Position numbers and translations under genes: made by a program. The notes beneath the pieces were generated by a model. The model was not told where the DNA came from and did no database searches. It was given only the letters and a program-made list of their open reading frames with translations. From Halegenticoccus soli (lineage in GTDB: Archaea; Halobacteriota; Halobacteria; Halobacteriales; Haloferacaceae): DNA of 64,000 nt. Shown in pieces: positions 41,626-43,206 of this stretch (within the stretch, counting starts at the first letter, position 1; every line of letters begins with the position of its first letter). Where the stretch lies: assembly GCF_002844195.1 (NCBI RefSeq), contig NZ_PEND01000006.1:248001-312000 (forward strand), written 5' to 3'.

Positions 41626-41675
41626 CCAGAACGCTTCGCGTTCTGGTGTGCAGACGAGACGCCCCGCGTCTCGTC
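41626..41675. repeat. Double-hairpin repeat, copy 1
   Basis: Two adjacent perfect stem-loops: CCAGAACGC-TTC-GCGTTCTGG (41626-41646) and GACGAGACGC, loop CCC, GCGTCTCGTC (41653-41675), with six bases between. Arms are 9 and 10 bases and both loops are 3 bases. The same architecture recurs at 42977-43025. Confidence 0.75.
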
Positions 41676-41758: not shown

Positions 41759-41896
41759 ATGCATACTGTATATACGGTGAAGCGGACCACAATCACGCTC
41801 CGAGAGGACCAACACGAGTGGGTTCAGGAACACCACCTGAACCTCTCGTCGTTCATCCGTGAGTGTCTTGACGAGTACATCGAGGAGCACGAGTAG
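41759..41896 (+). CDS. Small ribbon-helix-helix-like protein preceding TnpB
   Basis: A 45-residue protein, VKRTTITLREDQHEWVQEH then LNLSSFIRECLDEYIEEHE. The short strand followed by two helices (TITLREDQHEW; LSSFIRECLDEYI) is the ribbon-helix-helix pattern. Such genes commonly precede tnpB in haloarchaeal IS1341-type elements. Its stop codon TAG is immediately followed by the tnpB ATG, so they are cotranscribed. A GTG at 41777 is an alternative start. It may autoregulate the element, which is inference. Confidence 0.75.
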   Translation: MHTVYTVKRTTITLREDQHEWVQEHHLNLSSFIRECLDEYIEEHE

Positions 41897-43066
41897 ATGT
41901 ACTTCGCCCACAAATACCGTCTCAAGCCATCCGACGCCCACCGCGAGGAGTTGGACCGCCACCGAGACATTTGTCGGCAACTGTACAATCACGCGCTCTA
42001 CCGCTTCAACCAAATCCCCGAGGACGCAGGCACCCTCAATCAGCGCGTTCGGTCCATCCGCGATGAACTTCCCGCCCTGAAAGAGTGGTGGGATGGCCTC
42101 TCGGACGTGTATTCGACGGTGCTTCAAACGACCGTCATGCGAATTGAGCAGAACGTGAAGTCCCTCGGGGAACTCACGGAGAACGGCTACGGCGTCGGGC
42201 AACTCAAGTGGAAGCCCCCACGGGAGTTCCGCAGTTTCACGTACAACCAGTCTGGCTTCAAGCTCGACAAGAAGAGCGGTCAGACTGTGCTGTCTCTCTC
42301 GAAACTCGCGGACATACCGATACGGCTTCACCGCGCCATCCCCGACGACGCCACACTCAAGCAGGTCACGGTCAAGAAGGAGCCGACAGGCGAGTGGTTC
42401 GCCACCTTCGGCGTCCAAATGGAGCGTGAACCGCCAGAACCGCCCGAGGCTCCTGAGCGGTGCGTCGGCATCGACGTTGGCATACTCAAGTACGCCCACG
42501 ACACAGACGGGTTCGCAGTCGGGTCGCTCGACCTCTCCGACGAACGGGAACGGCTGGAGCGCGAACAGCGGTCCCTCTCGCGGAAGCAACACGGGTCGAA
42601 CAACTATGAGAAGCAACGCCGACGAGTCGCGGAGTGTCACGCCGTCCTCCGACGGAAGCGCCGCGACTTCTTGCACAAACTCTCGGCGTACTACGCTCGG
42701 GAGTACGACCTCGTAGCTGTCGAAGATTTGAACGTGAAGGGGATGCTCGAATCGCCGTCGAACAGCCGCAACACCGCGTCTGCCGCGTGGCGAACGTTCC
42801 TCTCGGTGCTCGAATACAAGTGCGAGCGAGCGGGGACGCACTTCGTGGCGGTCGACCCGAGAGGGACGACCAAGGAGTGCGCGGCGTGCGGCGTTTCGAC
42901 GGAGAAGCCGTTGTGGGTCCGTGAACACTCCTGTCCCGCCTGCGGGTTTGAGGCGGACAGGGACGCGAACGCGGTCGCCAGAACCGCCGGTTCTGGCGGG
43001 CAGCCAAAACGCGGAGCGTTTTGGCAACGGCGTGGAACATCCTTTCTCGCGGTCTTTCCGATGTAG
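41897..43066 (+). CDS. tnpB: RNA-guided nuclease TnpB, C-terminus frameshifted by repeat insertion
   Basis: A 389-residue TnpB. RuvC-like acidic residues are visible: D193 in GIDVGIL, E276 in AVEDLNVKG, and the third Asp in EADRDANA (354-356). The zinc-ribbon Cys are C328/C331 (CAACG) and C346/C349 (CPACG). The expected continuation WNILSRGL... occurs in another frame downstream, because 56 bases at 42975-43030 containing two hairpins interrupt the reading frame. The frame then ends in about 30 unrelated residues (GGQPKRGAFWQRRGTSFLAV). All catalytic residues are upstream of the break, so activity may survive. TnpB uses a right-end RNA as guide. Confidence 0.88.
   Translation: MYFAHKYRLKPSDAHREELDRHRDICRQLYNHALYRFNQIPEDAGTLNQRVRSIRDELPALKEWWDGLSDVYSTVLQTTVMRIEQNVKSLGELTENGYGVGQLKWKPPREFRSFTYNQSGFKLDKKSGQTVLSLSKLADIPIRLHRAIPDDATLKQVTVKKEPTGEWFATFGVQMEREPPEPPEAPERCVGIDVGILKYAHDTDGFAVGSLDLSDERERLEREQRSLSRKQHGSNNYEKQRRRVAECHAVLRRKRRDFLHKLSAYYAREYDLVAVEDLNVKGMLESPSNSRNTASAAWRTFLSVLEYKCERAGTHFVAVDPRGTTKECAACGVSTEKPLWVREHSCPACGFEADRDANAVARTAGSGGQPKRGAFWQRRGTSFLAVFPM
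42975..43030. repeat. 56-base double-hairpin insertion in tnpB (copy 2)
   Basis: Two perfect stem-loops: GCCAGAACC-GCC-GGTTCTGGC (42977-42997) and GCCAAAACGC, loop GGA, GCGTTTTGGC (43003-43025), separated by five bases. Removing the segment restores the conserved DRDANA-WNILSRG junction, so this is an insertion; 56 is not a multiple of three, which explains the frameshift. Confidence 0.8.
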
Positions 43067-43079
43067 GAGTGGTTCACTC

Positions 43080-43206
43080 CGAAGAAACGCCTGTGGAGAC
43101 TGCGCTCCCTACGGGAACCGATTCGGTTCCTGCAAAGCGCGTCGTGGAAGCAGGAAGCCCCGCCTCAAGGAGCGCCCGAAGGGCGCGAGTAGGGCGGGGT
43201 AGTTCA
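43080..43206 (+). ncRNA. Probable right-end guide RNA (omegaRNA/reRNA) of the TnpB element
   Basis: The segment after tnpB ends in nested hairpins: an inner GCGCCC-GAA-GGGCGC (43172-43186) inside an outer CCCCGCC/GGCGGGG stem (43158-43199), followed by the element end near GTTCAC. This arrangement is typical of the TnpB guide RNA scaffold, with the guide taken from the flanking sequence after about 43207. Exact 5' end unknown. Confidence 0.55.

What the first reader, a model, noticed from the sequence alone, without database searches (positions are those of the whole stretch)
42975..43030. Double-hairpin repeat inserted in tnpB, with a structural twin upstream
A 56-base segment with two perfect hairpins breaks the tnpB frame. 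A second unit at 41626-41675 has the same layout: 9-base arms/3-base loop, 5-6 bases, 10-base arms/3-base loop, followed by AACG. The second stems differ (GACGAGACGC against GCCAAAACGC) at three places, each with the matching change in the other arm, so structure rather than sequence is kept. Both first stems contain CCAGAAC. This looks like a small palindromic mobile or REP-like element.
Basis: seen in the sequence. Interest (0 to 1): 0.75.

Follow-up and report, generated by a model that had tools for sequence, protein, structure and literature searches.

The report
Mobile double-hairpin repeat in archaeal tnpB
A 55-60 base DNA unit made of two back-to-back hairpins appears to slip cleanly in and out of fixed places in the transposon gene tnpB of salt-loving archaea, keeping its folded shape while its letters change; it resembles bacterial REP repeats whose mover is unknown.

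Summary
The two units belong to a family defined by structure: CGTY-hairpin-spacer-hairpin-AACG. A covariance model finds 28 places in this genome at E<=1e-6 and members in 272 of 293 sampled genomes of the order. Stems covary: 98.6% of cells pair, 31-44% when slid; 15 of 19 pairs change on both sides. Both window units have empty sites. In 86 related tnpB elements the same sites recur, scattered on the tree as if at random. Two Natronorubrum copies, 99.2% identical over 1,351 bases, differ by exactly two units without footprint. At coding sites C and D all 17 inserts are 57 or 60 bases, in frame; the window's 56-base insert shifts the frame. Best reading: non-autonomous REP-like doublets, the archaeal counterpart of bacterial CGTC-tagged REP dimers and akin to Haloquadratum 'small mobile repeats', integrating behind NNCG without target duplication, probably as single strands. 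The enzyme is unknown: at least 86 unit-bearing genomes lack a detectable Y1 transposase.

The parts
42973..43028 (+). Unit 2: 56-base insert in tnpB directly behind the DRDANA codons (RuvC-III region; motif name recalled); hairpins 42976-42998 and 43003-43025, right-end AACG 43026-43029
   Evidence: 63 of 63 bases identical in two further copies of this genome; empty in L019, L020, L022
41621..41679 (+). Unit 1 (site A, noncoding left part of the same element): CGTCC-hairpin-TGTGCA-hairpin-AACG; hairpins 41626-41646 and 41653-41675
   Evidence: empty site ACAGCG|CCGCACG in L018
41541..43207 (+). Host element: tnpB-only IS200/IS605 (IS1341-type) element; approximate limits from the stretch shared with the copy on contig C5
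   Evidence: query 102-1768 aligned at 94%
41897..43066 (+). tnpB open frame as it stands (389 codons); C-terminal end replaced after the unit shifts the frame
41759..41896 (+). small ribbon-helix-helix-like gene directly upstream of tnpB (assignment by eye, recalled)
   Evidence: translation; no family search run
43080..43099 (+). Site C, empty in the window (CGAAGAAACG|CCTGTGGAGA); carries an in-frame unit in other copies

Best explanation
The units are non-autonomous, structure-defined mobile repeats: head-to-head doublets of a CGTY-tagged hairpin (5'-CGTC/T-hairpin-spacer-hairpin-(A/G)ACG-3'), 55-60 bases as a rule, the haloarchaeal counterpart of the CGTC-tagged REP dimers of bacteria. 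They integrate immediately behind a short NNCG target, the right end of the unit being AACG; the unit brings its own AACG, so no target longer than the shared CG is duplicated and loss restores the gene exactly. That logic (cut behind a target-like tetranucleotide at both ends, subterminal hairpins, no duplication, clean excision) is that of IS200/IS605 single-strand transposition, so I think a Y1 (TnpA-like) or other hairpin-recognising enzyme acts on them in trans while single-stranded. Preferred residences are IS200/IS605-type elements: noncoding ends, the loop of their near-terminal palindrome, and tolerated sites in tnpB. Inside the gene mostly in-frame units persist (19 or 20 added codons); the window's 56-base unit is a frame-shifting exception. 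SHOWN by comparison: family, structure conservation, empty/filled sites, clean junctions, recurrence, frame bias. INFERRED: movement rather than recombination at each site, the single-stranded route, the enzyme.
For: Family and structure. Clean junctions: site C has 62 empty copies with 5 bases between anchors and 11 filled ones with 57 or 60 more; site D 6 filled, all +57; site A empty/filled; L079 against L072. Right-end AACG is the unit's own: left flanks are AGCG (A), GTCG (D), ACCG (C in own_C3) while the right end stays AACG. Near-identical pair L200/L193: 99.19% over 1,351 bases, two units present in one and absent in the other. Recurrence: minimum changes C 11 for 11 filled, A 11 for 12, A2 7 for 8, D 5 for 6, near the shuffled means. 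Unit edges stand alone as the matched stretch in many plasmid records (query 21/22 to 82/83 of 101). Residence: 19 of 34 unit places within 1.5 kb of a tnpB/tnpA domain against 2.4% of the genome, others in a noncoding element of about 430 bases with tnpB-element-like ends. Nested and tandem units.
Against: Y1 transposase (PF01797) is found in only 186 of 293 genomes while units occur in 272 of 293, so at least 86 genomes have units without it; in the two such genomes looked at, 19 of 20 units sit in larger dispersed repeats, so copy number there may be passive. The tnpB tree is weakly resolved (36 of 83 inner branches open) and recombination between tnpB copies could mimic scattered occupancy. 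Guide/cleavage pairing as in IS608 was not demonstrated. The frame bias is modest against the noncoding baseline (17 of 17 against 12 of 17, Fisher p = 0.044).
Confidence: 0.6

Rival explanations
1. Old insertions spread by homologous recombination: units entered tnpB a few times, and filled alleles and stem variants are exchanged between tnpB copies by gene conversion; no current transposition.
For: The same exact sites recur; site B and D rows cluster slightly on the tree (fraction of shuffles with as few changes 0.05 and 0.1). The three copies with unit 2 are 94-98% alike in the 100 bases before it although parts of the copies differ more.
Against: At site C, filled pairs are not more alike in the flanking 60+60 bases than expected from their overall distance (p = 0.16, a weak test); three quite different second stems occur at site C in about 90%-identical hosts; units also sit in non-tnpB places such as the 3' end of a dnaK-like gene and in the spacer of another unit.
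Confidence: 0.22
2. Mobile repeat moved by an enzyme that is not Y1 TnpA (for example another transposase or recombinase), using the double hairpin as its substrate.
For: Units without detectable Y1 in at least 86 genomes; bacterial CGTC REPs are reported to lack a dedicated transposase (PMC3733652).
Against: No candidate found; junction logic fits Y1 enzymes; Y1 genes may have been lost or act after transfer.
Confidence: 0.3
3. Native structural part of the IS element or of its guide RNA (omegaRNA), not an insertion.
For: Fixed positions; site C lies near the 3' end of tnpB, where guide RNAs are read (established knowledge, recalled).
Against: 62 empty copies at site C; 79 of 80 relatives without a unit at site B by the model; both orientations relative to tnpB; units outside IS elements.
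Confidence: 0.03
4. The structure is kept because the RNA acts (stability, termination, translation), with mobility secondary.
For: Hairpins lie in regions that are probably transcribed, as inferred from the genes around them; not tested.
Against: Both orientations are used (site D antisense, sites A and C mostly sense); G-U pairs are rare in stems (2 of 208 cells); loops occur as reverse-complement pairs in similar numbers, which points to DNA.
Confidence: 0.1

Closest known systems
CGTC-tagged REPs, head-to-head dimers (Di Nocera et al. 2013, PMC3733652; parts 1-2 of 8 and passages read)
   Same: CGTC tag at the outer end, head-to-head dimers, heterogeneous compensated stems, no known transposase, some units inside palindromes or genes
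   Different: Reported by that paper in five bacterial phyla only; there stems begin with A/T pairs, loops are 4-5 bases and tails CCA. Here mostly 3-base loops, stems beginning CC/TC/CG, right tag CGTT, Archaea
SMR-A small mobile repeats and PATEs of Haloquadratum walsbyi (Dyall-Smith et al. 2011, PMC3119063; passages read)
   Same: Haloarchaeal, transposase-free, no target duplication, inserted in IS605-type elements and in their near-terminal palindromes, mobilisation unknown
   Different: SMR-A are about 110 bases with prominent terminal repeats; terminal-only PATEs (52 bases) are remnants of IS605 ends. The units here are 55-60 bases with two different hairpins and ends unlike their host element
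REPINs / TnpA-REP (RAYT) systems
   Same: Two hairpins back to back, non-autonomous
   Different: GTAG tag and RAYT partner; archaeal TnpA-Y1 are reported to be subclass 1.1 only (PMC6006769, passages)
Rickettsia palindromic elements
   Same: Palindromic repeats inserted in frame in protein genes (PMC10969869, passages); some are CGTC REPs (PMC3733652)
   Different: About 150 bases, many unrelated genes; here one recurrent host gene family
IS200/IS605 ends and their MITE-like derivatives
   Same: Subterminal hairpins, no target duplication, clean excision
   Different: No guide pairing or enzyme shown; two perfect hairpins make up the whole unit

Membership tests
CGTC-tagged REP dimers | Terminal CGTC tag | tested here: met
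   90 of 116 unit rows start CGTC (CGTY 95); the other end reads CGTT in 104 of 116, CGTC in 2; the rows were chosen by the model, which favours this
CGTC-tagged REP dimers | Head-to-head dimer with compensated stem variation | tested here: met
   15 of 19 pairs changed on both sides; many places score on both strands with the model
CGTC-tagged REP dimers | A/T pairs in the first two stem positions | tested here: not met
   13 of 97 scored first hairpins
CGTC-tagged REP dimers | Loops 4-5 bases, CCA tail | tested here: not met
   174 of 194 scored loops are 3 bases; spacers TGTGCG, TGGGCTG, TTGGC, TCATCA
SMR-A of Haloquadratum | About 110 bases with prominent terminal inverted repeats | tested here: not met
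   inserts of 51-60 bases, symmetry only CGTC/CGTT plus hairpins
SMR-A of Haloquadratum | No target duplication; preference for IS605-type elements and PATEs | tested here: met
SMR-A of Haloquadratum | Sequence relationship to HqIRS42/43/55 | tested here: inconclusive
   sequences not available; model finds nothing on plasmid PL47
Y1-mobilised IS200/IS605 derivative | Insertion behind a fixed short target, no duplication, exact excision | tested here: met
   (NNCG; comparison of alleles, direction not shown)
Y1-mobilised IS200/IS605 derivative | Y1 transposase present wherever units are | tested here: not met
   Y1 186 of 293, units 272 of 293
Y1-mobilised IS200/IS605 derivative | Guide-to-cleavage-site base pairing and cutting | not tested
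   needs an assay; pairing not worked out
Terminal-only PATE | Ends equal those of a parent IS605 element, a single palindrome left | tested here: not met
   host ends (TTTAGCT... / ...GTAGTTCAC) differ from unit ends; two different palindromes
REPIN/RAYT | GTAG tag | tested here: not met

The most novel reading that the evidence does not exclude
Haloarchaea carry an order-wide, fast-cycling population of minimal mobile hairpin doublets that repeatedly home to the same few positions of TnpB elements and behave as removable, in-frame protein inserts, driven by an unrecognised hairpin-specific enzyme (possibly by the RNA-guided TnpB host itself through break repair).
Probability: 0.25. Interest if true: 0.85.

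Novelty: new variant of a known kind. Interest (0 to 1): 0.64.

Why it matters
CGTC-tagged REPs were described in bacteria as repeats without a mover. Finding their structural counterpart in 272 of 293 sampled Halobacteriales genomes, with alleles that differ by exactly one unit per site in otherwise 99%-identical elements, offers genetically tractable archaea in which the moving enzyme can be found. It also shows a repeat family in which selection holds the fold, the ends and, inside a gene, mostly the reading frame, while stem letters change freely; and it explains some interrupted or lengthened TnpB proteins.

Tried and rejected
Rfam: no match in the window at gathering scores. Native omegaRNA or IS part: rejected by empty sites. 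Terminal-only PATE: rejected, ends differ. A unit in Haloquadratum PL47: none found, which does not settle SMR-A kinship. Y1 transposase as sole mover: not supported by co-occurrence. Weak model hits C9:97268, C5:438312, C14:367 and C4:370375 (E 7.8e-4 to 0.025) are in the table and among the 34 but not in the 28 at E<=1e-6; C13:12711 (E 2.6e-6) likewise. The unit at C3:348955 in L020 was missed by the model (seen), so counts are lower bounds. Phylum control: 33 of 33 own-order genomes and only 4 of 163 others match at E<=1e-4 (the split is read from the printed kinship rows); those 4 were not followed. Local-recombination test at site C: not significant (p = 0.16). Paper searches for a prior haloarchaeal description; only PMC3119063 is close; subscription journals are mostly not held.

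Full report
OBSERVATION. The window lies in a 4.6-Mb haloarchaeal genome (G000, contig C6:248001-312000; haloarchaeal by its relatives). A window scan for two neighbouring hairpins with arms of at least 8 bases finds only these two; 20 simulated sequences have none. Both fold far better than dinucleotide shuffles (z -5.0 and -6.3).

HOST AND EMPTY SITES. The units sit in a tnpB-only IS200/IS605-type element of about 1.67 kb, of which the genome holds several copies. Unit 2 is present, identical over 63 bases, in two further copies and absent from three others (L019, L020, L022). Without it the gene reads DRDANAAWNI...; with it the frame shifts and the product ends 30 residues after DRDANA. Unit 1 is absent from L018: ACAGCG|CCGCACG, against ACAGCG|TCC...AACG|CCGCACG when filled. 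L019 and L020 carry a unit at a third place (site C) that is empty in the window.

A FAMILY DEFINED BY STRUCTURE. Units with other stems were read from the genome by eye and script. Eleven of them (A2) gave a covariance model (R1). It finds 28 distinct places in this genome at E<=1e-6. On A2, 98.6% of cells form standard pairs, 31-44% when the partner is slid; 15 of 19 pairs change on both sides, and no shuffle of 500 reaches these three values. A2 was built from these rows with hand-set register, so the absolute values lean towards the structure; the compensation is visible in the raw sequences. Over 116 unit rows taken (104 distinct), 90 begin CGTC and 104 end so that the reverse strand reads CGTT. 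Two sub-types occur: CGTCN...TGTGCG/TGGGCTG...AACG and TGGTT...TCATCA...AACG. Units also occur in tandem (four hairpins, L011/L012) and nested in the spacer of another unit (L222, L223, L230, L232).

DISTRIBUTION. 272 of 293 genomes drawn from the order have at least one match at E<=1e-6, 81 of 88 genera. In a phylum-wide draw 37 of 196 match at E<=1e-4: 33 of the own order and 4 others. Unit 1 with flanks matches 53 plasmid records, with haloarchaeal names wherever organisms were printed. Many matches stop at the unit's edges, as expected of a separate mobile piece.

WHERE THEY SIT. 19 of 34 places lie within 1.5 kb of a tnpB or tnpA domain; such zones make up 2.4% of the genome and 12.7% of contig C5. 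Several others lie in a noncoding element of about 430 bases whose ends resemble those of the tnpB element, with and without the units (L075, L087-L089 filled; L037, L038, L032 empty at the second type). Three lie in the loop of a palindrome (CCTCGGGGTCAAG|unit|ACCCCGAGG; L076, L077, L084). One lies in the last codons of a gene that reads like dnaK (L073; name recalled, not searched). I found no unit-specific gene.

EIGHTY RELATIVES. A scan with four TnpBs returned the best 80 of 351 related loci, named haloarchaea with a few MAGs. R1 finds units in 28 of the 80. They fall at few positions: A or A2, about 270 or 560 bases before the start codon, 17 loci; site C, 9 loci; site D, 6 loci, antisense; site B (the window's), 1 locus; a handful elsewhere. 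Two plasmid copies (L127, L128) carry a 51-base unit at site B with other stems. At site C, 73 of 86 copies could be anchored: 62 empty with 5 bases between the anchors, 11 filled with exactly 57 (5) or 60 (6) more. At site D, 48 of 80 could be anchored and all 6 filled have +57. So 17 of 17 are in frame; 14 of the 15 from the 80 loci read through to the conserved tail, the exception L192 being broken upstream. At the noncoding sites 12 of 17 lengths are multiples of three, so the excess is modest (p = 0.044). Site B goes the other way: 56 (window, three copies), 52 (L176) and 51, 51 bases.

MOBILE OR INHERITED? On a tree of 86 tnpBs without the inserts, occupancy needs 11 changes for 11 filled at C (shuffled mean 10.6), 11 for 12 at A (11.4), 7 for 8 at A2 (7.8), 5 for 6 at D (5.9), 3 for 4 at B (3.95). 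That is what frequent gain or loss would give, but recombination among copies could too, and the tree is weakly resolved. The clearest case is L200 (Natronorubrum sulfidifaciens) against L193 (N. thiooxidans): 99.19% identical over 1,351 bases, one with units at A (54 bases) and C (60 bases), the other with both sites intact. Stems at site C fall into three unlike second-hairpin types in hosts about 90% alike, which argues for replacement or repeated arrival. The three copies of unit 2 in this genome, in contrast, are best read as one insertion shared by descent or conversion.

JUNCTIONS AND MECHANISM. Empty alleles read NNCG|N; filled alleles read NNCG|TCC...AACG|N. The left tetranucleotide varies (AACG, ACCG, AGCG, GTCG; a TG in place of CG in L079) while the right one is nearly always AACG, so AACG belongs to the unit and no target beyond CG is duplicated. 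Known IS200/IS605 elements cut behind a short target on the left and behind a similar sequence of their own on the right, recognise subterminal hairpins and leave no scar (established knowledge, recalled); the units share this geometry. Against a simple Y1 story, PF01797 is found in 186 of 293 genomes, so at least 107 - 21 = 86 genomes have units but no Y1 gene. In two of these (G044, G004) 19 of 20 units share flanks of another dispersed repeat, so their number need not reflect recent movement.

COMPARISON WITH THE KNOWN. Di Nocera et al. 2013 describe CGTC-tagged REPs, mostly head-to-head dimers, in five bacterial phyla and without a dedicated transposase. Tag and dimer architecture agree here; A/T stem starts, loop size and tails do not. 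Dyall-Smith et al. 2011 describe transposase-free SMRs that attack IS605-type elements and PATEs, insert in near-terminal palindromes, make no target duplication and move by unknown means; our units share habit and habitat, not length. RepRanger (PMC12306157, passages) lists no haloarchaea among the species seen in those passages. I therefore file the family as a new variant of a known kind, REP-like doublets / small mobile repeats, not as a member of either.

LIMITS. No movement was observed. R1 was built from this genome's units and was capped at 18 or 28 scored candidates per genome in the wide searches, so numbers per genome are floors. Relatives were ranked by TnpB likeness, so the site table is about this tnpB lineage, not all hosts.

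Noticed in passing
116 unit rows: Of 174 three-base loops 76 are all-pyrimidine and 65 all-purine, in near-equal reverse-complement pairs (TTC 37/GAA 24, TCC 18/GGA 21, TTT 13/AAA 11, TCT 7/AGA 7), as if hairpins flip orientation in place.
   Followed up: partly
L073:1520-1584 (G000 C6:194319-194383): A unit sits in the last codons of a dnaK-like gene; the reading frame gains a new acidic end (QDDDE) from the hairpin itself.
   Followed up: partly
   Followed up: no
L127:1819-1870 and L128:1809-1860 (Natronorubrum bangense, Natrinema salinisoli plasmids): 51-base (3n) units with other stems at the same tnpB position as the window's frame-shifting 56-base unit; no gene is annotated there.
   Followed up: partly
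   Followed up: no
G317, G326, G333, G423: Four genomes outside the order with matches at E 5e-5 to 2e-10; could be distant relatives, transferred or chance.
   Followed up: no
L131, L132 (Haloferax mediterranei pHME132): Arrays of two or three adjoining units, some beside IS6-family transposase genes.
   Followed up: no
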